Assembly (NCBI GenBank): GCA_023014335.1
Contig: JAECYW010000025.1
Location: 558,001-622,000, forward strand
DNA from: Galerina marginata
Taxonomy: Eukaryota; Basidiomycota; Agaricomycetes; Agaricales; Galerinaceae
DNA length: 64,000 nt
Reading direction: 5' to 3'
In this document: in pieces, positions 5,263-56,063 of the stretch
Position numbering within the stretch: the stretch's first letter is position 1
Layout of the letters: each line of letters opens with the position of its first letter
Made by a program: the position numbers and the translations under genes
The notes under the pieces: model-generated
What the model saw: the letters and a program-made list of their open reading frames with translations, nothing else
The model's database searches: none
Told to the model about the DNA's origin: nothing

Positions 5263-8200
5263 ATGGCTGACGACCGCCGACAGACCACCAAAGAGCCCAA
5301 AGGTTTCTTCAATCAACTGAAGAAGGCCCTAAGACCTGGATCGCAGAGCACGCCTCAAACCTGGTCAAACTCTCCTTCAAACGTTGTTGCTCAGCCAGTC
5401 GAGACTGCGGCGCCGCTTCCAGCTGCGCCCGCACCTACTGTAATAATCGACCCAAAAGAAGCTGCAAAACTCCGGGCCAAATACACCCACTTTCGCATTC
5501 TTGTCATCGGGAGGGCAAATGCAGGAAAAACAACGTTGTTAAAGCGGGTGTGCAACACGACTGAGGAGCCGTCCATTTACCATGAGGGACAAAACCTGGT
5601 GAGCTATCTGTTCATTGTGGTATTTCACATTCATCATTTCTTCCACAACAGCTGGCACCGACCGCGGAGGTGCGGCTCAGTGATTTCTGCACTTACCTTA
5701 AGCTAGATGACTCATTAACTGTGTAGTGCGGGATCCACGACGTTCGCCGTTCATTCACCTTCAAGAGCAACCCCGGGTTTATCTTCCACGACTCTCGTGG
5801 TTTTGAAGCTGGGGGCGAGGATGAATTCAAGGCTGTGATGACTTTCATTGAAGAGAGGTCAAAGTCCAGGGAAGTTGGTGACCAAATCCATGTCATCTGG
5901 TGCATTTTTATCACATTTCTTGATGTGACTGTGGCCCTTGCTGAGAATGCACTCAGGTACTGCTTTGAGCCAGATGTATCACGCCCTTTACTGCCTTTAG
6001 AAGTGAAATTCTTCAATGAGGATCGTGTCTCAAATGGTGGGCTCATGCTGAATGTTTAATTCATTTTCAGAAACTAAAAAAGTACAGTTCCAGTTGTTGC
6101 AATCTTCATGAAATTTGATGTCCTCATCACAAAGGTTCAAGGCTCAAAACCAGACAACAAGAAGGACATCAAGAATGCTTTGGATATATTGGAGAAAAAA
6201 TTCATGCAGCCACTCAGTAGCTACAAATTTTACCCTCGGGCTTATGTGCAGTTTGAGGGTGGGTTTTTAATTATTCAGAGGCCGGTCTCAAGATTGATGT
6301 TATATCTAGCCATCAATAAGGACAACAGTGGTCATCAGAAACAAGTCAAAAAACTAATCAAACAGACAGCAGCATCAATAGACAATCTTGCACTGAAGAT
6401 GTTATTTGTCACTGTCCAACAGAATAACTTGGAGGTTTCCATTGAATATGCAGTAAATAAGTAGGTTTTATGTTTTGTTCACTCTGGCTGCTATTTATTT
6501 TCCATTTCAGGCATATCTTTTCAGTGGATAATATGGTATATGTTATTGTAAATTCCAGATATATTATGCTGAAGAAAATAAAGCACAATTTAATTAGGAA
6601 TACTTCAACTTGGTTTGGACACTGCTATAAAATGGTATGTAATAATATTATATGCATGCACTAAAAACAAAACTAAAAGTCAAAAAGGAATATGTGAGAA
6701 TCTTATGTGATAAGAATTGAACTGATAATAATAAAATACAGGATGTAAGTAATATAATTATTATATTACAAAAAACAGTGTTAACATATATGTTTAGTAT
6801 GTAGGTGCAATAAAAAAACTTTCAAGAAATTTTTGACAAGTGTTTTCAAAGGGAAAGAAGGTAAGAATTGAAATAATGGAGAAGTAAAGGCTAAATATTG
6901 TACTGATTATTGTTGCTGATATTTTCTATATGAAATTCCATCCAGGCTGTGAGTTGTGTGGACTTTTCTTTGCTTGATTTCAATTACTGATATTATCTGC
7001 ATGAAATTCTATTCAGAATGTGAGTTGTGTGAGCTTTCTTTGCTTGATTTCAATTGCTGACATTACCTGCATGAAATTCCATCCAGCTTGTGAGTTGTGT
7101 GGGCTTTTTGCTTGATTTCAATTGCTGACATTACCTGCTTGAAATTCTATCCAGGACGTGAGTTGTGTGAGCTTTCTTTGCTTGATTTCAATTGCTCATA
7201 TTATCTGCATGAAATTCTATCCAGTATGTGAATTGTGTGGGCTTTTTTTGTTTGATTTCAATTGCTGACATTACCTGCATGAAATTCCATCCAGTATGTG
7301 AGTTGTGTGGGCTTTTTTTGCTTGATTTCAACTGCTGACATTATCTGCATGAAATTCTATCCAGCCTGTGAGTTATGTGAGTTTTTTTTGCTTGATTTCA
7401 ATTGCTGACATTACTTGCATGAAATTCCATCCAGTATGTGAGTTGTGTGAGCTTTTTTTGCTTGATTTCAATTGCTGACATTACCTGCATGAAATTCCAT
7501 CCAGACTGTGAGTTGTGTGAGCTTTTTTTGCTTGATTTCAATTGCTGACATTACCTGCATGAAATTCTATCCAGCTTGTGAGTTGTGTGAGCTTTTTTTG
7601 CTTGATTTCAATTGCTGACATTACCTGCTTGAAATTCTATCCAGGCTGTGAGTTGTGTGAGCTTTCTTTGCTTGATTTCAATTGCTGACATTACCTGCAT
7701 GAAATTCCATCCAGATTGTGAGTTGTGTGACCTTTCTTTGCTTGATTTCAATTGCTGACATTACCTGCATGAAATTCTATCCAGGACGTGAGTTGTGTGG
7801 GCTTTCTTTGCTTGATTTCAATTGCTGACATTATCTGCATGAAATTCCATCCAGACTGTGAGTTGTGTGAGCTTTTTTTGCTTGATTTCAATTGCTGACA
7901 TTACCTGCTTGAAATTCTATCCAGGCTGTGAGTTGTGTGAGCTTTCTTTGCTTGATTTCAATTGCTGACATTACCTGCATGAAATTCCATCCAGACTGTG
8001 AGTTGTGTGACCCTTTTTTGCTTGATTTCAATTGCTGACATTACCTGCATAAAATTTCATCCAGAGCGTGAGTTGTGTGAGCTTTCTTTGCTTAATTTCA
8101 ATTGCTGACATTATCTGCATGAAATTTCATCCAGCCTGTGAGTTGTGTGAGCTTTTTTTGCTTGATTTCAATTGCTGACATTATCTGCTTGAAATTCTAT

Positions 8201-9031
8201 CCAGGCTGTGAGTTGTGTGAGCTTTCTTTGCTTGATTTCAATTGCTGACATTACCTGCATAAAATTTCATCCAGAGCGTGAGTTGTGTGAGCTTTCTTTG
8301 CTTAATTTGAATTGCTGACATCACCTGCATGAAATTCCATCCAGGATGTGAGTTGTGTGAGCTTTTTTTGCTTGATTTCAAATGTTGACATTACCTACAT
8401 GGATATCAATTCAGAAAGTGAGTTGTGTAGACCTTTTCTTCTTAATCTGATCTTTAATATACTACTTTATATGTCTTCTAGTTTGTAGCTACTTTACTAT
8501 TACACTAGTTTTGTCCTACAACATCAACACACTTGAATTTTACAGGCACATAATATTCAAGATATTCTTACTCCTCAATTCAATGTAAGATTTTTTAATT
8601 TCCCACTTTTTATTATATTAATTTTCATTATATAGAAACCATCCTTAAAAGCTTTTATCGGTGTGTTTGCAAACATCCATTTTTCTATTGGCTTTTGTTT
8701 TTATTCTAGACTCTTTAGCCATTCTCATCTGTCTTGAACATTCCTTTTGGCTTGTTCAGCAGGGCTTCAGTGTTATCCCAGCTTTCACTGAAGCCTGGGG
8801 CATTTATCTTCAAGCCAAGCATGCTGGACTTGATCAACAAATATCTAAGCACTTCAAATTGACAGAAAGCAATGACTGGTTTACTGTTAAAATTGAACCA
8901 TCTAAAGTTGAACGTGCCAAAGTTCAGAAAATAGTCATTGACAACCTCCTTTGTAAGTTGGGCCTTTGTTTTTTTTTTTTTGCTGTGTGGATAATATATT
9001 CTCTTTAGCTCATTCTCAACCCATTATTTAA
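5263..9031 (+). CDS. P-loop GTPase with shredded central region
   Basis: This is a paralogue of the GTPase at 408-2520. Exons with clear junctions are 5263-5598, 5652-5669, 5727-5899, 5957-6036, 6088-6258 and 6310-6460. Exons between 6461 and 6945 are unresolved. After the intron array come short exons near 8546-8584 and 8636-8660, then one from about 8711 to 8954, and a last exon 9009-9031 ending in TAA. Motifs are G1 GRANAGKT, G3-like HDSRGFEAG, G4 MKFD, and later LAILICLEHSFWLVQQ, aligning with LICILHCLF of the first gene. The N-terminus is Pro/Ala-rich and probably disordered. The 5' quarter has normal base composition. From about 5820, inside exon 3, the gene becomes AT-rich and nearly CpG-free. 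Family assignment is firm; expression and the exact exon set between 6.46 and 8.55 kb are open. Confidence 0.8.
6861..8481 (+). repeat. tandem array of about 21 intron-like 67-nt units separated by single triplets
   Basis: Each 70-bp period (one unit is 68 bp and one 71 bp) consists of donor GTGAGTTGTGTG, a pyrimidine-rich stretch, TTGATTTCAATTGCTGAC (branch-like CTGAC), and an acceptor ending ATCCAG, followed by exactly three bases before the next GTGAG. The triplets and their starts are: 6946 gct, 7017 aat, 7087 ctt, 7155 gac, 7225 tat, 7295 tat, 7365 cct, 7435 tat, 7505 act, 7575 ctt, 7645 gct, 7715 att, 7785 gac, 7855 act, 7925 gct, 7995 act, 8065 agc, 8135 cct, 8205 gct, 8275 agc, 8345 gat, 8415 aaa. 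The first unit is preceded by an intron-like stretch from 6861 (donor gtaaga) with the same acceptor. The last donor at 8418 leads into a diverged intron ending near 8481 or 8545. The array lies inside the second GTPase gene. Confidence 0.93.
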
Positions 9032-15934: not shown

Positions 15935-16614
15935 CGCTTTCCGAATCAGGAAGGTGGTTGAAAATCTCAACCCATTTATTCCCCCTTGTCCAGTGAGTTT
16001 GATGCTACAAAAGCTATATCAATATGTTCGCATTTTCAAGGGGAATACAAGTAGATAGTTTATTTGAACATTTACAAAAGCGAGCACGGAGGGAAGGCGA
16101 AATGATGGTAAAACAACCCAATCAATGTCTCCGGAGATAACTACCGCATTGAGAATTATGGCAAACTAAAAATAGATCGTCATCCAAATGCTCGAGCGCT
16201 AATCCATCCAATCCCGCACCAATTCAGGCGCGCAAAAAGGTGAATAAGGCGCCGAGAATATAATCAATCCTATATCACAACTTTTCGTGGCTCGAAAGCG
16301 CCTATTTCCCGTCCAGGAACAAAAATACCGCCCGGGAACCATTCTGCTGCTTTGTTTGTTCCTTGTTTGTACATTCCCGCCACCCTACACTAATTCTACC
16401 CCTCTCCCGCCCTTTTCCCCGGCATTTCCGGCATCCATTACACCCTACCCGCCCCCAACAAGGGATCTCTACCTCACCCCCGGCATTTCCGGCACCCTAC
16501 AGCATGATTTATAAGATATGTCCCAAAGCGGAAGCTAGGCAGTTGGCCTTCTGGATATGTCAGCCTATTAGGCAACTGGCAAGGGGTCATATATCAAGGT
16601 AGCATCTATAGGTG
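15935..16614. repeat. right long terminal inverted repeat
   Basis: This is the partner of the arm at 11573-12260, in inverted orientation. The inner end lies near 'ccgctttccgaatcaggaag', matching the complement of the end of the left arm. The outer end adjoins the gaagtttc duplicate at 16615. Confidence 0.88.
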
Positions 16615-19105
16615 GAAGTTTCGGGATGTTGAAGTGGGTGTGGATACCGAGAGAGATGAAGATGTCGCAGTTTAGATGGAATGCGTGAAGGGCGTCGTCC
16701 ATTTGAACAACTGTTTCAGATGTGTGAATCGGGTATCTAGCTAGATAGATGAAATCAAGGACCGCACAAACAGCGCGGACTAATCGGGCATTGGAATGAC
16801 CGTCAGGAAGACGGATATCGGCAACTAATGCAAGAAGAAACCTTGAAATTTGATCATGCTCCGTGCCAGTAACGCGAGAAAGGTTAGATATTCCTTTCAT
16901 AAACAGTCGGATATGGTGATTTGGGGGCAAGCGACGGCATCGAGCGTCAATCTCCGCGTCTCCGCATACAGCACGAATCCAAGAGATGAGATGTTTGAGA
17001 AGACCTTGGTATAGCTGGTGAAGGATATCAGGCGTGATGGCGCGATAGATGTCAACGAATGGAAGGTTTTTCCAGAAAACACACTGGACGGGTTTAATTC
17101 CTGCAGCAGCACATGCTTTGGTGAATTCGGCAGCTCCTCTGTCAACAGCATTGAGAGCTTCGATGATTTTCGCCGTGTCGCGAGGCTCGAGGTTGCTTTC
17201 CCAGTCGCCAATTTCGTTACGGGGTGCCGGACAGATGGGACAATCCCCGTTTTTGACCAACGCGACCAAAGTTTGCTCCGGATAATCACCTACATACGCG
17301 GCAAGAATTGGAAAGCATCGTCTTATGGAACCATCTCCACTGACGAGGACAATTCCATCGCGTCCAGCAGTCTCCAAGGGCTTCACAATGTACTGCATGC
17401 AGTGGTGGAAGAGGTTAGACAAGCAGCGGCGACGCGAAGCCTTATTTGTGATGTGTTCCAGTCTTGAGGTTGGGAGGTACGCCAACAGAACTTGACCTTG
17501 TCGAGAGGGTTTACGGCGGATGTGCTTCGGAATGTTACCAATTGTGAGGTAGACTGGGTAGGCTTTCTTCCCGCGAAAGGTTGTAAGCTGTGTTTTGTCA
17601 GATGAAATAATAATCGGCACCACCGTAACATTTTTACTTCGAGTTGCAGTCTGAACCTTTTTCTAGTTTTCATGAGTATGTTGAACAAACAAACACAAGA
17701 TGATCAAAGATATCTACCTGGGTATCCCACCACCACTTGCCCGTGTTCATTTCATGATAAATCCGAATCGTCATGTCTTCATCGGCATAAAGACGCTCAG
17801 GCTCAAGAATGAGGTCGTCGGTGAAATCAGGGTCCCCCCATAGCGCGCGAAGACATTCTATAATATTGCGTGCATAAAATTCGAGAACTTCGCCGCTCTG
17901 CACGACCTCGCGACGTTTGAATTGTGGCCGTCCAGGTAGTTTCATGTCAATGATTCGGTTAAGTTCATCCGAGTTCTTATAAGACAAATTGAGGGCTTCG
18001 CGGACCTGTTAAATGAACATGAACATGACATTACAAGGGAGAAATTGAATGAAACTTACCCCATCTATTGACAGAAACTCAGAAAATGCCGTCGATCCCA
18101 CCCCTCGAAGTTTAGCCCATTTTGCAATCTCCCAATCCTTCTTCGAATTGAACGGAGCCCAAGGGTTATCTCTGCTGCCAAGCGCTGAGGTGTATTCACT
18201 GTCGCGAGACTCCTCACGCGATAAAGGCTGGCCGGCTCGTGAATCTGGATATCTGTCAATGTAGCGAACTCTAACCGCTGGCTTGACACCATAACCGTTT
18301 CCGATAATAAATCGGTCAACCTTCCGTTGTGTATAATCATCGTCATTCTCATCGCCGTTGTCCAAGTCTGACTCAGAGCCGGATCGAGCTTCAACATTCC
18401 CCGGTTCAGAGCCGTCCTCCGCTTCCTGATGAGGTGCGCCATTTTGCGGTGGTTCCCAGCTCTCTTCCAATTCGGCAACCATATGTGCCAAGTCTTCATC
18501 GTCATCTTCATCGTCAGATACCTCACTCAGAGGTGGGAGGTCGTTGGGATCAGCATCTCGCATATCAACATCCGAGTCAGCATTGTCGTCATTTTCGAGT
18601 TGCCCAAACATGTCCATCTCGTAGTCCTCCGCAGACCCAAAAGCATCACCTTGAAACGGCGGCGCAGCGGCAGCATCCAGGTCCACTTCTGCAGAATCAT
18701 CGGAAGCGGTCGCCCCAGCACTCATAAATTGCTCATAGGCATCGTTAGCCTTCTTGAGTTTGTCGAAAACAGCACGACAAAGAGGGTCTTGTGTTTGGGC
18801 CAAGTGAGACTGGTAACCTCGAAGTGAAAACGGGCTGTCACAGCCTGAGCAAGTAATTGATTCTGAAGACATGGTTGACTGGAACTTGAACTTAGTGATT
18901 GTCCAGCTTGGATCGCCGAGATAGTTAGTCACGGGTGAGTTGCGGAAGCAAAAGATGGCATTGCAAAACTGTACAGTACCAACAAACAAACAAGAACAGT
19001 GGCGCAATCAACAAAACACGAGCCTGACGCTCTGTTGATCTCTCACCATCGCAGTACTATTGCTGCTCCTCTTCACGTTAGATCCCTGGTTGTTCAGTTA
19101 GCGAG

Positions 19106-22984: not shown

Positions 22985-25900
22985 GGGGTTTTTCCTGATG
23001 GATGTGGAGAGATGGCTCATTGTTGGCAAGACATCCGGGCAACAGCCTTCAGAGCAGCAACATCGCGAAGATGATAGATGGTGTCAGTAATTTAGCTGTT
23101 GACGATGTTGTGAACTGGCAAGGAGCAGTAGCATTCCTGATCACAGTCTGTGAAAGAGACTCAACCCAAACTTGTGATAGGACTCAAAACAAGAACAAGA
23201 AAGAAATGTGATAGATAAGACAAAGAGGAAGGGGCAGATATAAGAAGAAGAAAAGAAAAGAAAAATCAAACAGTGAGTGACGATGAAGCAGTAGTGGTAG
23301 CGTTCAGAAACGAAAATGTTCATAAGAAGGAAAAGTCGCAAGCAAGGTGAAGATGGAAAATCGTTCAACCAATATACCGCCCAAAGACCAACAAAGATAA
23401 AACAAAAAACAAAGAAAAAAAGATACAGTCATCCACCGGCTAATGTTACACTGAAAGTCACAAAAACCGAAATGAAAAATTTTCATCGCCCTTTTTCCCA
23501 ATAAAAACTATATGATAATTCTTTATAATTCTGTTAGTTCCTTCTGTCAAATTTTCAGGTGATTTTATTCACTTCTCGCAAAGTTATTCCCAAAAACACT
23601 GGTGTAACACTGAGTAGTGAGCCAATTTGAGGGACTTTGGGTTCGCCATTCCTCAGTCAATTTTTATCTGTTCCCTCTGAAAATTTACAAGGTAATAAAG
23701 AACATATACAGCTCACAGGAAAATTTTATTTCATCAGAAAATACCAATTTTTGGCTGAGTTATGAAGGTGTAACACTCAGTGGTGGCGTAACATTAGCCG
23801 GTGGATGACTGTAGAACATAAGATGAAGAAAAAAATAATTGTCCAAAACCAAAACGAGACCCAAGTCAATGACGGCCGTGGCAGGTTAACCAGCTAGTTG
23901 GTTGTTCGAGGCTCAAGGCCTAAGGCCAAAGTTGAAAGTGCATCCTATTTGCCACTGACTCCCATCCTACGTAAGAGTCCAAAGTACCTGCGAAAGGAGA
24001 TGGCAGCCTCGTCCGAAGAGCGGTCCAAAAATATCCGGAATCCAACTCCAGAAGAAGTGCCTGATCGTGATACAACACCTCCCCCAGTTCGGCAGGAAGA
24101 CAAGATGAACGTCAATGTCGAAAGATCTGGCAGACTGGCACGGCAGGATGCTCAGAACCCTCTGTCAACGTCATTGCCGGCATTCTCAAGTTCCTATTAA
24201 GCATTTCCTGCACAAAAGAAAGTCATGAGTGGTTCATTCAATCAAGTAGTAGGTTCTCATATGAAGAAACGTACCTCAAGCTTTCTTTCCTCTCTTCTCC
24301 CACCACAAGCCAAGTTCAAAGCACCCAAGATCAACCAACGACCAACCTAGGCCCCTCGCCAAGCTCCCCAAATTCAGCCCGACTCCCTCTCCCCCTTCCC
24401 GTAGCAGCACCTCCAACACGCGTACCTCCACCAATGCTAGCCCCAACAGTCGGCCCTGGCACGTGTGCGAAACGCCATTGTCCTACGAAAGCTTGATAGA
24501 CCGCGTCGTCTGTTTGTTGGGGCGTTGTTGGAGTCGTGGATGAACTTGACGTCGAACCTGTTGGAGTTGAGGCTGAACCCGACGTTAAAGTCAAAGTAGA
24601 TGCAGATGTCGGAATAGGCGTCATCAACACCGACGATGGTGTCGGTGTGGACATGCCCGACGACAATGCACCCGACGCGACAGAAGCAGGCGTAGGAGTA
24701 GCAACGTCCATACTCGACCCCCACGGCGACGAGACAGGCGATAGGCACAGCGGAAACCGAGCGCTTGTCATTCTACTCCCTCCTCCTCCAACGGCAAGAC
24801 CACCAGGAGACCCAAGAGGAGAGGAAGAAGAAGGCCTTGGCGATCCCGGTCGATAACCCCACATCGTCGGGCCAGCACCCATGTTAGCTTGGGGTTTGGC
24901 TGTATTCGCATTCGCGTTGATATTGGAATCAGCCCCGGAACCCGAACTCGACCCGGACGGGGAGGAATGCAAAAGCGAACGGACAGGCGAGTGAAGCGGC
25001 GAACGGGTAGGCGATGAAGAGTGCACAGGCGAGTGCAGCGGAGAACCAACACCAGGACCGCGCTTCTATCCTCCTCCGCCTTGGATGTTGTACATGGCGG
25101 TAGCAGAGGCAGAAGCAGAGTCGCTCCCACTCCCACCCCCACTCAAAGACGACGATCCTCCATTACCGATGCTGAACGAAGCCTTCATCGGCGCAGCAGC
25201 AGCAGCAGCCTCGTCAAAACCAGGAGCGTGAGCACCTTTCCTCCGATGCACATGCGCCGGTACACTCCTTCCGCCTCCTCTGCGGCGGCATCAACGCACC
25301 CTTGCCCACCACAGGACCCGATCCTTCTCCAGGCGAAGACGACACGCTCATACGATACCCTCCACCAGCGCATCCACGTCCACGTCCTCCTTCTGCGCAG
25401 CTTCGGTGGCGTCCTCAGCTTGGTCATTATCCTCGTTAATGTTGATACCAACAGCGCCGAACGACCCCCACGGCTAGTGCAACCCACCCCCTCCTCACCC
25501 AGCTACCGGCGATCCAGCATCATCCCCACCAAGCACAGAAAAAGGAGGTGTCGAACTCGTATTAGAAGGCCTCGGTATCGGGTTCTTCACATTGGCGTTG
25601 GCGTTGGAAAAATCAACAGCCCTCGAAGCTCCAGAAGAGGGCGAGGGCGAGGGCGAGGGCGACGTGTTCGCAGCCGTACCATGAGACCCAAGAGCAGGAG
25701 AAGGAGACAGCTTAACGGCATAGCTATTTCTCCATCCCCATCCCAAGCTCGCCTTCCTTCCCTGTAGGCGTAGGAGTGCCCACACACACTCTCATGCCAA
25801 ACCCAGCAGCGCCGATAGAGCTCAGCACTGCGCCCCATGAAGGTCTCGCCGGAGGAGCTGTCGTAGGATTAGGAGCAAGACGAGCAGCAGCAGAAGCGGG

Positions 25901-45672: not shown

Positions 45673-48600
45673 ATGCCATACGCAACGCCAACCTCCTCAC
45701 CGACGCAGGCGTTCCAGCCGCTCGCCCATTCCCATCCCCATTCCAATTTTTATGCGGGCAAGCCACTCTCCCACTCGTCGCCACACTGGCAGCCCGACCA
45801 CCAGTCCCCCTCGCACCACGACCACGACCCCTCCTCTCAACCCCAGCCCTACTCCCAAACGCAGCCTGACCCCGAACACCAGCGCGAACCACAAACCCAA
45901 CCACAGCCCCAAGGCCGCACAGGGCACCGCCGCTCGTACTCCCACACGCACATCGCAGCGCCTCCTAGCACGGCGTTCACTTCTACCTCGGGGCCTCTCG
46001 GGCCACACGGGTCGCTTGGGGTGCTGCCTAGAAGGCGGGCTGGGGGGAGCGCGCCTGTTACGCCTTTGTCTACACCTAGTTCTGCTCCTGGTTCTGGTTC
46101 TGCTCCTGGTTCTGCGCCTGGGGCGAGGGCGGGGCCGGGGCCGGGAGGGAGGGAATATGGACAGCCAGGCACGACGCCGAAGAAACCTACGTTCCAGCTT
46201 GGGCGAGACGACGATGACGATGATGACTCCTCGAGCGGGGAACAGGAGTCGTATCCCGCCTCCAACACGACCACGAAGCCAAGGGTGTCAGTGTCGACCA
46301 AACGCGACGCCGACAACGACGACGACGATGATGATGAAGACGATCAGCTGAGAAGGTTGCCTCCGTTGAGGTTGAAAGTGAAGACTTCTTCGTTCGATAC
46401 CGCGCCCACGCCTTTTTCCCCTCCGCCACCTCTTGCGGCGGCGAATCAGCAGTCACAGCTTGCGGTGCCCTTCCCGCGTTCGTCGCCGGTGGGTTCGCCA
46501 GCGGGGTCGCCTTCTATCCCTGCCACGGGGGTGTCGTTCCCGAAGGCGCCTGCGATGCATGCAAGGAGCGTGTCTGAACAGCCGGCCCATGTGGTTGCGC
46601 CGAGGATGGCGCGTACGGCGTCCTACCAGAACAGCCCGCCATCCACCACCGTCTCAGGAGTCGCAGGTGCAATCCCAGCAGAAGGCCAACCCCGCCCGAT
46701 CCGCCCCTCCGTCTCGCGTACCTCCTCAACGCCGATTCTGCTGAGTAACGGGAAACCGCTGAAGAGCAGCTTGAAGAGCTCGAGTTCGAGCCCGAATATG
46801 GGGGGTGTGCCGTTTCCGAGCCAGTCGGTGCTGCCGAGTGTTTTGTGGCCTGATTTGCATCGGAGGGAGGGTGGGGGGCAGCATGGGCATGGGCACGGGG
46901 GACAGCATGGGGGGCATGGGCATGGGCAGCATCAGCATGGGCATGGGCATGAGCATGAGCACCTGCACCAGAGAGCAGCGAGCGCGCCAGAGCCTCCACC
47001 TTCTTTAGCGTCTTCACAAGCTTCGCTCTCCCCGCCTCCCTCGCTCTCGTCCTCCATAACCTCTCTATCCTCCTCCGCCTCATCCCCCTCCTCGCCTTCC
47101 TCCCCGCAAGACTCGCCACCCCCCTCACCCAGCCTGAGCATGACATACCACCCGCACCCACCCAAAAACGTACACTTCCCATCTCAAGACACGAACCTAG
47201 CCACCGTACGCGTGTTCAACCGGTCTGCGCGGCCTGCTTCTGTGTCGTTAACGGGCACGGGGGTGGGAGGCGCTGGGACGGGGGTTGGGGAGGAGACGGA
47301 GACTGAGACGGAGGGGGAGGGGAGTGGGACGGGAGGAGGGGGAGGGGGGGCGAGGTGGCCTTGGGGGTATGGGGGGTATGGGGGGCATGGGTATGCGGGT
47401 GGGGGTGGAGGTGGAGAAAGGGGGGGGAAGCAGGGGTATCCGTTCCCGAGAGTGGCTGGGAGTCGGCAGAGCCCGCTAGGAGCTAACGATGCCGATGGTG
47501 AGGGGAAAGAGTCGTTCTATGCGCTTGACTCCGCGGGATGCTCTGACGTGCCTATGCGTGGGGCGGAGAGGGGGGAGGGGAATGTGTATTTGGAGAGTGT
47601 TGGGTTCGTGCTTGCTGGTGTGTTTGCGTTTTCTTCTTTTTCTCTTGGGCGTTTGTTGACTCTTTCTCTTCGTAGACCCTTCGTCATCGTCATCGTCATC
47701 GCAAACCCCAAAGACCCCTCTAACACTAACAGGCACCCTCCTCGTGCGCAACGTCACCTACCAAAAAACCGTAGCAGTCCGGTTCACGCTCGACGAATGG
47801 CATACCACGAGTGAAGTCCTCGCTAAACACGAGCGGAGTCTCTCGTCCCTGCCCTCCAGTTTCACCGCTCGCGAAGACCGCCGCGTGTGCTCGCCGTACG
47901 CCTTAGACAACACGACGGCGGTACGAGCGGGTGAGGGAGAAGTGCCGGCATGGGATCGGTTCAGATTCGAGGTTAGCTTGGAGGACTATGCGAGTTCGGG
48001 CACGTTGGCGGGGAGGGTGATGTGGCTTGTTGGGAGGTATACGGCTGGGGTTGCTGTTGATCCGTCTGCTGCTTCCTTGGGCGGCGGGGGTGTGAGGGGG
48101 GGAGACGAGGTGGAGGAGGCTGTCAAGGCTGCTGCTGCTGCGGTGGGCGGAGGCGGAGGCGGGAAGGTGCAGGAGTGGTGGGATAATAATGGTGGACGGA
48201 ATTATCGCGTTGGGTTTAGGAAGGTGGAGGGGAAGGAGGGTCAGCTGGGTGCGAGTTCGAGGGTGCATCAGCAGTATAAGAGAGGGGTTATCCTCAGCGC
48301 GCCTTGTACGTCTTTTCTCTCGTCTTCGTCTTTAATCCGTCGATGCTAACCCTCGCTCGCTATACAGCCGCATACACCCCGCCCGCACAAGGATCCAAAT
48401 CATTCCCCGCCCCTCCCCAAATCTCATCCTCCGCGTCCTTCCCCTCCGGCTCCTCCTCCTCCTCCTCCCCCTCTTACGCTCCAGCCGCACGTGCGCAGAG
48501 CCCGTATAACTACCACCCGTCAGTGTATCAGCAGTCTCCATACGCACAACAGCCTTCCGCGTATCAACAGCGCGAACTGCAGCGTGAGGAGGAGGAGTTG

Positions 48601-50568
48601 AACTTGCAGCAGCATAGTCAGCATCAAGCGGCGATGGCGCAGAGCACGCTTGCGAGGTTGAGGAAGTTGAATTTGAGGAATTATGCGGCGCCTGCTGTGT
48701 CGTATCGGGCTAGTTATTTGCAAAATGGTTCGACGACCTCAAGTTCGACCCTGGATTCGAGCACCAACTCCAATGCCGACGCCAACAACAACGAATCGAC
48801 GCCGGTGCAGACGCCGGTGCAGGAGCCTGTTGTCCGTCATGAAGACGATGACCAGGATAGTGATCGGACTCCTGGTGCTTCTCCCCCTGCCCCTCCTGGT
48901 GCTGCCCCTGCTTCCGCTCCTCCGACGAGACCTTCATGGGGCGCCGCGCTGAGCACTATCGGCGGTGCTGGGCTCGGAATGAGAGGGGTTGGTGGTGGTG
49001 TGGACACGCCAACGCCTACGGGTGTGATGGGGATGGAGAATGGGTATCCTGCTACGCTCTCTCCTCGTCCTCCTCCTGCTCCTGGCCATGGCTCTCCTCG
49101 TGCGGCTGGGCCTGCGAGCACATCGCCCTCGTCCTCTTCTGGAGCTTCGAGGGCTGTGGATTTCTCCAACGCCAACGCCAGCTTCCACAATGCCAGTGGT
49201 AGGAACGACCCGATACCGAGCCCTTCTAATACGGGTACGACACCTCCTTTCTCTATTCTTGGTGGGGATGATGCCGGGTCGCCGGTGACTCCAACTGCGA
49301 GAGGAGGAGGGTTGTATTGGCCGTGGGGGTCGTTCGGGGCTGTTGGTGCTGGGTCTCCACCTTCGTCTTCACCTACAACCAGTAAGGACGACAACCATGA
49401 AGGGGAAGGAGAAGGAGAAGAAGTGGAGGCTCTGTTGGAGGGTATCAAGGAACGAAGCATGACATCCTCGTCGTCGCCTGGAGGAGGAGGAGGATCAGGT
49501 CCTGTGGTGGGCAAGGGCGCGTTGATGCCTCCGCAGAGGAGGAGGAAGGAGAGCGTACATCGGAGAGAGGGTGCTCATGGGTATGGGCAGGGGTATGACG
49601 ATGCTGCTGCTGCTGCTGCGCCGCCATCGCCGGGCAAGGCTGCGTTCAGCGTTGGCCTGGGTAATAGAGGGTCGTCGTCTTCGAGTGGGAGTGGGAGTGG
49701 GAGCGACTCTGCTTCTGGGTGGAAGCGCGGTCCTGGTGGTGTTGGGTCGCCTTTGCACTCTTCGTCGCCTCTGCACTCGCCTCTGCACTCTTCGTCACCT
49801 CTTCACTCGCCTGTCCGCTCGCCTGTCCGCTCGCCGCTTCACTCTCCGTCCGGCTCGGGGTCGGGGTCTGATTCCAATCCCAACGCGGGTAAACCCCAAC
49901 AAGCACAAGCTCCAACTCCAGTAACGATGAACATGAACATGGGTGCTGGCCCGGCGCTGTGGGGATATCGACCGGGATCACCTCGGCCTTCTCCTTCTCC
50001 TTCCTCATCCCCTTCATCGTCTTCCTTTTCAGGTGGCCTTGGTGTTGGTCTAGGAGGAGGAGGCAGAGGCATGGGCATGCCAGGCGCTCGGTCCCCGCTC
50101 CGCTTGTCACCTGTCTCATCTCCGTGGGGGTCGAGTATGGATGTGGCTACGCCTACGCCTGCTTCTGTCGCGTCGGGTGGGTCGGGGATGATGATGCCGG
50201 GGATGATGACGCCTACACCGTCGTCTGTCTTGTCATCCTCAGCATCCGCATCAACTCCTACGGCGGCTCCGTCATCAGCTTCAACTCCAACGGGTTCGAC
50301 ATCGACATCGAGTCCAGCTTCCACACCGACCCCAACCACGACGTCAGCTCCATCGACACCCCAACAAACAGACGACGCTGTCTATCAAGCTTTCGTCCGA
50401 CAGTGGTGTTTCGCACAGGCGCCGGGGCCGACTGTGGGCGCGAGTGTCGGTGCGGGCGGGGGTGCGCCTGGGCCTATTGGAGGTGTCGGTGCGGGAAGAG
50501 GGAGGGGGAGAGGGAGTCCGGCTGAGTTCGGGGAGCTTGGCGAAGGGCCGCGGTTGGTCGTTGGTTGA
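45673..50568 (+). CDS. CBM21-domain protein phosphatase 1 regulatory subunit, Gac1-like
   Basis: The protein would bring type-1 protein phosphatase to glycogen and so activate glycogen synthase. Exons are 45673-47617, 47676-48305 and 48368-50568, encoding 1,591 residues. The N-terminal 500 residues are disordered (His, Pro, Ser, Gln and Gly runs; an acidic stretch near residue 215). Around residue 497, PKNVHFPS holds a K-x-V-x-F type phosphatase-docking motif, followed at once by the CBM21 fold: TVRVFNRSARPASVSL, VYLESVGFVL, TGTLLVRNVTYQKTVAVRF, EWHTTSEVLA, WDRFRFEVSL and finally WWDNNGGRNYRVGF. A Gly-rich insert of about 70 residues splits the first strands from VYLESV, and Gly/Ala inserts interrupt the later part. 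The third exon is very Ser/Pro/Gly-rich and ends with DDAVYQAFVRQWCFAQ and a Gly/Arg tail. It is nearly three times longer than yeast GAC1 (793 residues as I recall). The ATG at 45673 opens the frame leading into the domain. Confidence 0.88.
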
Positions 50569-52689: not shown

Positions 52690-55600
52690 TTATTCATCCA
52701 TTTCCTCGGCATATAATTCCCACAAGTCAGGTTTGTGCTCCGTTAAACCCCCCAACCATGAATGCAATTCGCCAGTTGGGTCAACCCCGTGTTTCTGTGT
52801 GTTCAGAAATATGTGAGATGGGGCAAGTGGTATGCTTTCGAAACATACCTCGAGAAAACCGATGGCCCCAGAGCAAAATCCTGTTGGTGGCTCCCATTGT
52901 ATTTCCACCCCACGGAAAAGGTAGCATAAAGTCCAAAGCCCGACCAAGATCTTTGTACTCGGATTTGCATACGAAAACCACTTGGAAAAATGTGTTGGGC
53001 TCCAAACCGAATGAAGGACAGTTGAAAAATATCGGGTTTGATCAGCACTGCAGGGGTGGAGGAATATTGCATAAAAAAGTAAGTAATACTCTAGAAAACG
53101 TGTGTAGCATTTTACACGATTGATTGGCAGGTGGTGGGCCCATTTCTCCATGATGGCAGTGATTCTGGAGCTTGCTTTAAGATGGTTGCTCCATTGACTG
53201 ATATAATGTATTTGATTCTTCCAGTGATTATTGATATTATATGGTGCGATGGTATGTTCTGAGGGCAGGTGTTGTTTCTGGAGGCCGTGGTCAAGAGGAG
53301 GAAATGTTATTGACAGTAACCAGGTTTCTTCGGCTTGTAAGTCATCAAAAAAATATGAAACCATAAAATATGGGAGCATGTGTTGTTCAAATATCTGATT
53401 TGACATCTGTACCATTCGTTTTCGAAAACAGTCGAGCAATGGCGGAACAGGATCCTGGTCCTGAAACAAGATCAGTGGTGTATAGGAGAAGAGTAAATAT
53501 CTGCTAACCAATTGTCTATGCAACCATTCAAGAATAACAAACTCCACACTAAAGTATGAGCTTTCGAGCTGTTTTAAATTTCTCCAATTATTGCCAGCAC
53601 ATAAGTTTTCCATAAAAGCTTGCATGTTTTGACTATCTTCTAGATCTTCCCCGAATTTTATGTCTGAAATGTCACAGCAACGAAGAAATTTCTTGATAAA
53701 CTCTGAAAGGCGCTGCGGGTCCTGCTCTGGTGGTCTTTTACAAGATAAAACACAGTTAAATCAGGCTATGAGGAGGGTATAAATACAAGGCCTACATATT
53801 GACACCCAAACGTAATTGATCCTGTGGGTTATTGAGAAATGCCAGCACTTGCTGACTGGCCCGAATGAATTTTCGGCGAAACCGAATATGAAATTCCCCG
53901 CCATGCAATGCACTCTCCAGAAAATTTTGGAGACCAGGTGTAGGATAGTAGTGAGGGACCAAGCTATTCTTTCGGGCAGCTTGAGTGCTATCAGATACTG
54001 AAAATAGGACCCCAATCAAGTGTGCGTTGTTGATGAGAAACATTTTACAAAGTTCTTCACTAATGGCGAGGGTCTTGGCCAGTGGTACAAATGCATCACC
54101 AACAACAAAATATGGCACATTCTCAAACTCCAGAAAGTCAGTGACGGACAATAATTGTCGAAAACAGACACTTTGGACAGATATGATATCCTGCTGGATG
54201 TTGCAGATTTTTGTAGGATTTCCCAGCTAAAAAGCTGTCAATGGTCTGCAACTGGGTAGAATGAATGTCTCACTTTGAGGTCAATAATCCCAAGTAGTAG
54301 CCCTTTAATATAACAGATGTGGCAAAGTAGGGACTTCCAGTTTGGGTGTGTTGTTATCCTGTTTCCATTATCTGCAAGTGTTTGGATTGCCACTTGCAAA
54401 TCATTGAGACACTTGTCAATGGTTGTAGGACTTGCAATGGATAACAAACCACTCTCTAGTATATCTGTCCACTTATCATTGGACAGCATTGGAGGGTACC
54501 TGGAGCAAAGAAATGGTCAATAAAATCAAAATACACAGGGAATCAAGTTTACCAATGGTCTTGGGCTCCAATGAGGCCATCAATAATGAAACCAACAAAA
54601 TGGTTGAAAATTTTGTCAGCCACCACCTGGTGGTTGATCACAAATTCACCGGATCGATTTGAATCCATGAGGTATTCCTTCAATGATCGATGAGAGAAAA
54701 ATAGGCGTGGTGTCTCACGTCGACAAAGTGACTCCAGTTCTTTGTCGTGATCAATTGGCAGCTCGTCTTCCCTTGATAGCAGTGAATTAATTGCTCGCAA
54801 AACCAAATTCAATTCTCTTTGCTCCACAAGACATTCTCCAATTATGTCCTGGTGTGCATCAACAAGGAAGCCTCCCAAAACACAGATTAAGCTTTTTTGT
54901 CTGGGATAAACAGACAAGATCTTCGTATAGAGCCGGTCAAGATCTGAGAATGCAGAGGCCTGTAAAGGACTAGGAGTCAAAATGATATCGAGTTGTTCCT
55001 GTGGATCATAAAATTCAGCGCCAACAAACTTTAGAACGGTCTTCGCATAGATAAACTGTCCGGACGCATTCAAAACGAGGCGGTCAATCACATTCTTCGG
55101 TGGCCATGGGCTTTGGATTCCTGTCATGACGTCTAGATTGTTATCAAAAATTTCAGCAAAGCCGTCTTCCAAGAATTTCCGGATATCGCGAGAAGCCTGC
55201 AAGGAAGCGCCGAGATCCAGTCGCTGCGTTATGTCAAAGAGTGGTTTCCGATCAAATTCTTGGCGAATCCAAAATTCGGGTCGGCTGGCAACTACGAAAC
55301 GAAGTGGGACACCAGCAGCAGTCGTCGCATTCGCGATAAGCTTCAAGATGCCTTGCTGGGTTTCGGATCCTTGGCATTCGTCTAAGCCGTCGATTAAGAT
55401 TGTTGGGGTGTGCGCTGGAAGGAGTTGGCAATACTTGAAAGGTTCGACGATGAGGGACCGGAATTGAGCCTCCATCGACTTCGTATGGAGGGTGACGTCG
55501 GCGATCATCGCGTTATTCACAGCCTCTCGCATGCCTGGCACGTTTATCGCGATCTGGTAGGCCAGCGTGCAGAATAACGCATCACCTTGATCGCACTTGG

Positions 55601-56063
55601 GCTTTCCGCCGGTGAAGAAGAAGCTACCTGCGTAATGTTCTTTCAACCATTCGTGGAGGGACTCCGCAATCGTCTGCATGATGGCTGACTTCCCTGCTCC
55701 TGCCTGTCCGTAGAGCCAAAGCACGTTTGAGGGAGGGTTCGGATCTTTGACCCACTCCTGAATCGTCTTGACAATTTCCTCGCGAGTGCCAGGGTGACAC
55801 CTGCCTGCTGGGTACCTCTCTAAGGAATCGTGGATCGCTCCATGAGATATGACATGGCTCAGCGCGATGAGGCCTTCGAGAATATGTTCAAAGTACGACT
55901 ATATGTTAGGGCTTGCTCACTCACCAGCGTCTTGAGATTGCCCGGAGAAGTTGTTATGGTGAACATCCCCATGAACTTGAGTGAACGTCGAGTCGTAGAC
56001 TCTGGTACCGCTAGCACCGGCAAAGAACGGGTTTCCTCCAGTGCGTCTCGTCAGATCAGACAT
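52690..56063 (-). CDS. NACHT-domain NTPase (NLR-like)
   Basis: The product is a STAND-type NTPase of the fungal NLR class, a family linked with self/non-self recognition and defence. The main exons are 55898-54553, 54499-54274, 54226-53796 and 53734-52690; they join in frame and end at TGA 52690-52692. Visible parts are SHGAIHDSLERYPAGRCHPG (the conserved lead-in), Walker A WLYGQAGAGKSA, Walker B TILIDGLDECQG, and FVVASRPEFW (sensor). After these come winged-helix-like blocks and a C-terminal region of about 570 residues without WD40, ankyrin or TPR repeats that I can recognise. The first exon beginning at the ATG 56063 (MSDLTRRTGGNPFFAGASGT) fits the family, but only 26 nt separate it from the next exon and the frame does not carry over. 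The N-terminal junction is thus unresolved or broken. The rest is intact. Confidence 0.85.

What the first reader, a model, noticed from the sequence alone, without database searches (positions are those of the whole stretch)
6861..8481. An array of about 21 near-identical introns separated by exactly one codon each
Every 70-bp period has a GTGAGT donor, a CTGAC branch-like motif and a CCAG acceptor, and exactly 3 nt lie between each acceptor and the next donor, 22 times in a row. The array sits inside a GTPase gene in the sense orientation. If spliced unit by unit, it would produce 22 single-codon micro-exons, each flanked by copies of the same intron. I know of no described gene with this arrangement. 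Alternatives are one long intron containing a minisatellite that happens to hold splice signals, or repeated insertion of an introner-like element. The regular 3-nt exons are a direct sequence observation; splicing is inference.
Basis: partly seen in the sequence, partly recalled or inferred. Interest (0 to 1): 0.95.

Follow-up and report, generated by a model that had tools for sequence, protein, structure and literature searches.

The report
Gene cut into one-codon exons
A mushroom GTPase gene contains a run of 22 exons of one codon each, separated by near-identical introns, and relatives' sequences indicate that such codons are spliced together into a fast-changing stretch of protein, an arrangement that appears undescribed.

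Summary
At 6946-8417, 22 triplets are separated by 21 near-identical introns of 65-68 nt. They lie in a GTPase gene that can be spliced in silico into 38 exons, 25 of them 3 nt long, all 37 introns GT-AG, giving a 469-residue frame. The same architecture occurs in 14 GTPase-family loci and one ankyrin-repeat gene of this genome, on five intron sequences without clear mutual similarity. A three-donor pattern matches 238 times genome-wide for 3-nt exons and never for 4-nt exons. The triplets behave as codons: 0 stops in 387, 14.7 expected. Codon positions 1 and 2 are near saturation while the introns are homogenised. Intron-free database proteins of relatives, mostly on contigs too short for the unspliced gene, read through the array position as a variable stretch of about 3-39 residues between conserved ends. 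One starts inside an array intron and continues into joined codons. I conclude that the codons are spliced singly into a hypervariable peptide. Unequal recombination in the introns plus selection on codons is the likeliest, unproven, engine. Ten literature searches showed no precedent.

The parts
5263..6634 (+). Exons 1-8 of the GTPase gene (5263-5598, 5652-5669, 5727-5899, 5957-6036, 6088-6258, 6310-6460, 6511-6535, 6584-6634): P-loop GRANAGKT ... WFGHCYKM, ending in phase 0
   Evidence: in-silico splice without stops, all GT-AG; segments of 38-72 codons compared among 9 paralogs give dN/dS 0.03-0.21, leaving out pairs with L016 (dS not estimable) and L012-L013 (dS 0.025, dN 0); Galerina marginata model P0130 listed at 88% identity over 38% of the query
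6742..6744 (+). one-codon exon GAT (D)
   Evidence: AG-GAT-GT also in L009-L015 and L017, GAC in L016; D of the DYG motif in relatives' proteins
6798..6800 (+). one-codon exon TAT (Y)
   Evidence: also in L009-L017; Y of DYG
6852..6860 (+). three-codon exon GGAAAGAAG (GKK)
   Evidence: similar 9-nt exons in paralogs; GEK, GKK, GKE, GKT at this place in P0060, P0123, P0121, P0131
6861..6945 (+). intron before the array; its 3' half resembles the array unit. Several paralogs have one more one-codon exon here (GAG in L012, L013, L014, L016); I see none in the window
6946..8417 (+). array of 22 one-codon exons ANLDYYPYTLAIDTATSPASDK with 21 introns of 65-68 nt
8418..8481 (+). closing intron, diverged from the unit
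8482..8484 (+). one-codon exon TTT (F)
   Evidence: TTT is the last triplet of the chain in 8 of the 10 loci (L010-L017); here it follows the AAA triplet; CTT at this place in L009; F ends the variable stretch in 8 of the 9 relatives' proteins that fitted, H in P0131
8546..9031 (+). C-terminal exons (8546-8584, 8636-8660, 8719-8952, 9009-9031), AHNIQDILTPQFN KPSLKAFIAILICLEHSFW ... NLLSHSQPII, stop
   Evidence: matches the C-terminal part of P0121-P0126

Best explanation
This is a functional fungal GTPase gene in which a stretch of protein is encoded by consecutive single-codon exons, each flanked by a copy of the same short spliceosomal intron. The pre-mRNA is spliced unit by unit (intron definition; every donor survives removal of the upstream intron, and every array exon is 3 nt, so any order or any skipping stays in frame). 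The joined codons form a hypervariable segment on the C-terminal side of the G domain. [Codon behaviour shown here from sequence; splicing shown for relatives by intron-free database proteins, whose cDNA origin is inferred; not shown by RNA from this strain.] The arrays grow, shrink and reshuffle by unequal recombination inside the near-identical introns, which adds or removes whole codons without frameshift, while selection on the protein keeps the codons diverse. [Inferred.] A role in nonself recognition or conflict is a guess from the hypervariability.
For: (1) Regularity: 3-nt exons only, while intron length varies; 238 vs 0 pattern matches. (2) Codon behaviour: 0 stops in 387 triplets of 15 arrays, 14.7 expected from within-array column shuffles, minimum 5 in 20000 shuffles; for 144 distinct kinds in 14 arrays, 4.9 expected, 51 of 20000 shuffles reached 0. 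Mean diversity at codon positions 1, 2, 3 is 0.67, 0.68, 0.41 against 0.13 for intron interior; positions 1-2 exceed every intron column in 22 of 28 cases. (3) The upstream exon ends in phase 0 and the full frame of 469 codons has a natural stop. (4) Paralogs with dissimilar introns (L016, L017, the C40 group, L064) have the same 3-nt spacing. (5) Intron-free relatives on 0.9-1.3 kb contigs: 9 of 10 tested fit a loose motif with variable stretches of about 3-39 residues between the DYG-like start and F (H in one) plus a 13-residue block. (6) P0129 starts with 11 residues matching 10/11 the in-frame 3' end of 12 of 342 array introns and then continues into joined codons. (7) L012 and L013 flanks are identical at 1531/1548 and 582/601 sites, but their chains have 23 and 37 triplets.
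Against: No RNA from this strain could be examined. The relatives' proteins come without nucleotide sequence or sample type. P0060 did not fit the motif to its end, and P0131 fits with a different register and closes in H. L017 introns lack a CTRAY branch motif (0 of 20). Some units have broken signals: a lost acceptor in L066 near 5307, a GG donor in L015 at 5398. Position 3 is not less variable than positions 1-2 everywhere: in L011, L016 and L017 it is about as variable, so the selection argument rests on the other arrays. Identical introns often keep a neighbouring codon (left 0.44, right 0.58, chance 0.12), so codon change is not fully decoupled from duplication, and codon hypervariability could partly reflect intron-only homogenisation.
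Confidence: 0.87

Rival explanations
1. One long intron (6861-8481) holding a minisatellite that happens to contain splice signals; the triplets are never exonic.
For: The unit is a regular tandem repeat; skipping all 22 codons keeps the frame.
Against: Stop avoidance and near saturation of codon positions 1-2; exact 3-nt spacing in arrays with dissimilar units; relatives' intron-free proteins have a variable insert there; P0129 joins an intron end to codons.
Confidence: 0.06
2. Introner-like element inserted repeatedly between the codons of an ordinary exon.
For: Homogeneous introns between different codons; introners are known in fungi (PMC4457414 and PMC9860276, search listing and abstract starts; five terms looked for in PMC9860276, none found).
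Against: The two unit searches returned matches only inside arrays (lower bounds). Duplicated multi-unit blocks such as FGEETY-FGEETY in L013 show tandem duplication of intron plus codon. Third bases of array codons (T 197, A 135, C 13, G 9 of 354) differ from 257 codons of ordinary exons of the window gene (C 75, G 64, T 60, A 58).
Confidence: 0.04
3. Splicing is real, but codons are variable because only the introns are homogenised (short gene conversion or intron-RNA templated repair), without positive selection.
For: In 31% of 36 identical-intron pairs neither neighbouring codon is the same. Intron pairs with at most 2 differences (present in 11 of 14 arrays) differ at codon positions 1 and 2 in 22-76% of comparisons. 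In L011, L016 and L017 position 3 is as variable as the others.
Against: On average position 3 is less variable than 1 and 2 and is invariant T in the aligned units of L064r and L067, which unselected leftover sequence should not show; codon identity rises as introns become identical, as expected of joint duplication.
Confidence: 0.28
4. Array introns encode small RNAs (like tandem snoRNA host genes) and the triplets are spacers.
For: Tandem intronic RNA arrays are known in mammals (search listing; otherwise recalled).
Against: No Rfam match at gathering score in window, L013, L016, L017 (the other loci were not given); dissimilar introns in paralogs; does not explain codon behaviour.
Confidence: 0.02

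Closest known systems
Microexon genes (MEGs) of schistosomes
   Same: Runs of very short symmetric exons thought to generate protein variation (PMC5825161, passages)
   Different: MEG exons are 6-36 bp according to that paper; repeated near-identical introns are not mentioned in the passages read. Here every array exon is one codon and the introns are copies of one another.
Repetitive homogenised introns of Argiope MaSp2 silk genes
   Same: Introns homogenised within a gene, arisen independently within the genus, proposed to channel unequal crossing over (PMC9779670, passages)
   Different: There the exons hold large repeat units whose coding sequence is highly homogenised too; here the exon is one codon and is hypervariable.
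Isolated 3-nt microexons (Drosophila homothorax; lipS of the fungus Dactylellina)
   Same: Exons of 3 nt occur (PMC7392893, abstract start in search listing; PMC5639578, one passage naming two 3-nt exons)
   Different: One or two exons, not arrays of 13-41.
Introners and stwintrons of fungi
   Same: Near-identical spliceosomal introns in many copies (PMC4457414, PMC12403724, search listing)
   Different: Integrated at new positions (listing); here tandem in paralogous genes with one codon between copies.

Membership tests
Microexon genes (MEG kind) | most of the coding region in short symmetric exons of 6-36 bp | tested here: not met
   array exons are 3 nt; most of the 469-codon frame is in ordinary exons
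Microexon genes (MEG kind) | alternative inclusion of microexons | not testable with these tools
   no RNA reads from this strain
Introner / introner-like element | near-identical introns dispersed in many unrelated genes | tested here: not met
   searches with two units of the window/C23 group returned only array positions in paralogous genes (lower bounds); units of L016, L017, C40 and L064 were not searched as DNA
Introner / introner-like element | target-site duplication or transposon ends | not tested
   not looked for
Spliceosomal U2-type intron | GT..AG ends with donor and branch consensus | tested here: met
   37 of 37 introns of the window gene GT-AG; CTRAY in 19 of 21 window array introns, but 0 of 20 in L017
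Fungal P-loop GTPase (G-domain protein) | Walker A motif and relatives annotated as GTP-binding | tested here: met
   GRANAGKT; relatives P0132-P0134 carry PF01926 in the database; the window protein itself shows only a sub-threshold Septin match and the L017 model none in Pfam

The most novel reading that the evidence does not exclude
A previously unknown genetic device for making hypervariable protein segments: each codon is an independent exon bracketed by identical introns, so recombination in the introns inserts, deletes and reorders single amino acids with no frameshift, and partial exon skipping could add combinatorial isoforms. Array codons end mostly in T or A, and an NNT codon can mutate freely at its first two bases without making a stop. 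The device recurs in 14 GTPase-family loci and one ankyrin gene, possibly for nonself recognition.
Probability: 0.38. Interest if true: 0.97.

Novelty: categorically new. Interest (0 to 1): 0.95.

Why it matters
It shows genes where the exon is reduced to its logical minimum, one codon, up to 41 times in a row, with introns serving as the repeat unit. It challenges ideas of how small an exon the spliceosome can define, offers a natural system for studying sequential splicing of near-identical introns, and suggests a new way to evolve hypervariable proteins. Such genes are probably mis-modelled in other Agaricales: the annotated relatives I read from Galerina, Amanita, Crassisporium and Phlegmacium end at, shortly after or before WFGHCY without the C-terminal block, and a Hebeloma model (P0178) holds the C-terminal block alone.

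Tried and rejected
Rfam search of window, L013, L016, L017: no match. Viral contigs: the pattern gave 46 stretches, one or two matches each, read as chance background and not followed up; no relative of the GTPase there. Structure: the model of relative P0121 has residues 151-179, most of the array part, below pLDDT 50 between better-predicted helices; Foldseek E at best 0.83; the model of P0130 is poor (53.8). A search for spliced relatives of the ankyrin gene found 8 proteins: an annotated Mycena relative and distant ankyrins, none showing an array. An in-frame TAG in the second exon region was first feared to be a pseudogene sign; it is an intron acceptor. A TGA triplet in L066 was a mis-registered unit with a lost acceptor and was dropped, as was a false first triplet of L064 (before); (its intron part) used the arrays before this correction. 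L068 shows only the first exon of a paralog and no array. The 2-nt exon genome-wide control did not complete; locally 2-nt exons give 0.

Full report
What is there. The window lies in a 69.3 Mb, 43-contig genome. At 6946-8417 there are 22 triplets, each between a YAG acceptor and a GTGAGT-like donor, separated by 21 introns of 65-68 nt. The host gene is a P-loop GTPase in the same orientation. Splicing it in silico at paralog-supported sites gives 38 exons, 25 of 3 nt, 37 of 37 introns GT-AG, and one open frame of 469 codons ending in a natural stop. The upstream exon ends in phase 0, so the triplets are codons. Read straight through, the array is closed by stops. The closest annotated protein seen is Galerina marginata GALMADRAFT_150392 (P0130, listed at 88% identity over 38% of the query). 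Its model ends in residues that in the window are intron sequence (P0130), so the host is probably an agaric near Galerina (inference).

It is not one gene. Paralogs found by protein and DNA search and a pattern search give 15 arrays of 13 to 41 triplets (387 in all; in L010-L017 the closing TTT is counted in). Fourteen are in GTPase-family loci: two on C18, one on C20, six on C23, four on C40, one on C42. One (L064, C19) is in a gene with ankyrin repeats (Ank_2 E 1.2e-16) that, as I read it, ends in frame shortly after its array. The intron units fall into five groups (window and C23, L016, L017, C40, L064). Between representatives of the groups, global alignment z-scores run from -0.8 to 3.0; the highest, window against L016, leaves a remote relation possible. 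The exon is 3 nt in all of them. Of 238 three-donor matches genome-wide, 237 are in the window and 13 fetched loci. The 15th array (L069) has donors too variable for the strict pattern and came from a protein search, so 15 is a lower bound. A paralog on C23 (L068) shows only exon 1 and no array.

The triplets behave as codons. No stop occurs in 387; shuffling each codon position within each array gives 14.7 on average and never fewer than 5 in 20000 shuffles. Counting each kind once per array (144 kinds, 14 arrays), the expectation is 4.9 and 51 of 20000 shuffles reach 0. Two triplets were dropped before these counts: a false first one in L064 and a mis-registered TGA in L066 whose unit has lost its acceptor. 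Column diversity averages 0.67, 0.68 and 0.41 for positions 1-3 and 0.13 for intron interiors; positions 1-2 exceed every intron column in 22 of 28 cases; 314 of 339 units were used, those of unusual intron length being left out. Position 3 is not lower everywhere: in L011, L016 and L017 it is about as variable as positions 1 and 2. Array codons end in T (229), A (135), C (13) or G (10); in L064, L067 and L069 nearly all end in T. Segments of flanking exons (38-72 codons, 9 paralogs) show dN/dS 0.03-0.21, not counting pairs with L016 (dS not estimable) and L012-L013 (dN 0).

Evidence that the codons are spliced. A protein search with spliced models found intron-free relatives on contigs of about 0.9-1.3 kb. 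In our gene the corresponding parts span about 2.5-2.9 kb, so proteins with long arrays cannot come from unspliced DNA of this architecture; P0128, with a stretch of about 3 residues, is a weaker case. They run WFGHCY-like, a few residues, DYG-like, 2-3 residues, a variable stretch, F, a 13-residue block and PSLxAFIAILICLEHSFW-like. These are the predicted exon products in order: GAT=D, TAT=Y, a 9-nt exon, GAG (in L012, L013, L014, L016), the array, TTT=F, a 39-nt exon. I tested ten proteins that cover the place (P0129, P0135 and P0138 start later and were not given). Nine fit a loose motif, with stretches of about 3-39 residues, all different; eight close in F and P0131 in H, with a shifted register; P0060 is truncated after F and did not fit. 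P0131 resembles the L016 subfamily, including GKT plus E. P0129 opens with LLTLPALNPIQ, 10 of 11 residues equal to the in-frame 3' end of 12 of 342 array introns (200 shuffled targets against the introns of 10 arrays: at most 7), and continues into joined codons up to F. I read this as a transcript with one array intron retained and the later ones removed. That these contigs are cDNA is inferred, not stated by the database.

How it evolves. L012 and L013 have flanks identical at 1531/1548 and 582/601 sites, but 23 and 37 triplets with little correspondence except at the ends. Among 36 identical-intron pairs within arrays, the left codon is the same in 44%, the right in 58%, both in 33%, neither in 31%; chance is 12%. 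This fits duplication plus recombination inside introns that re-pairs codons. Keeping the codons diverse while introns are homogenised needs either selection on the protein or a homogenisation that spares codons; the lower average variability of position 3 favours selection, but three arrays do not show it, and for that reason I set the rival at 0.28 and the boldest reading at 0.38.

Rivals and limits. A single long intron, an introner invasion and an intronic small-RNA array each fail one or more tests (see rivals). Weak points: no RNA of this strain; some broken units (a lost acceptor in L066, a GG donor in L015); L017 introns without CTRAY (0 of 20); the 4-nt pattern read backwards gave 8 matches; the 2-nt genome-wide control did not complete. 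The structure model says only that most of the array part lies between helices and is not confidently folded.

Novelty. Ten full-text searches of the held library with terms for one-codon exons, microexon arrays and tandem or repetitive introns listed no gene with arrays of one-codon exons; I judged from titles, abstract starts and, for five papers, passages. The nearest are schistosome microexon genes (passages), repetitive introns of spider silk (passages) and isolated 3-nt exons. Subscription papers and preprints outside the library were not searched.

Noticed in passing
window 54549-55724 (-): NACHT/NPHP3_N NTPase domain, a fungal NLR-like protein fragment
   Followed up: partly
window 16568-17623 (-): Plavaka-type transposase (PF18759, E 5e-85), with a long ORF beside it at 18009-19007
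   Followed up: partly
window 45673-50568 (+) and 24331-25026 (-): Region with a CBM_21 match (ORF 47744-48349); the C-terminal sequence TPQQTDDAVYQAF...GELGEGPRLVVG of the ORF ending at 50568 appears in similar form on the minus strand at 24331-25026, perhaps a displaced partial copy
   Followed up: no
L011 4488-5219: One array intron is 732 nt long; it reads like an insertion of other sequence inside the repeat unit
   Followed up: no
L069 2813-4879: Array in which GTGAGT and GTGAGA donors and shorter and longer introns largely alternate, reminiscent of the alternating introns of Argiope silk genes
   Followed up: partly
L064 (C19:220500-230400, minus strand): Ankyrin-repeat gene with 28 single-codon exons just before its likely stop; nearest annotated relative is from Mycena metata (P0199, 57% over 62% of the query) and ends GDQNASA soon after the ankyrin part
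   Followed up: partly
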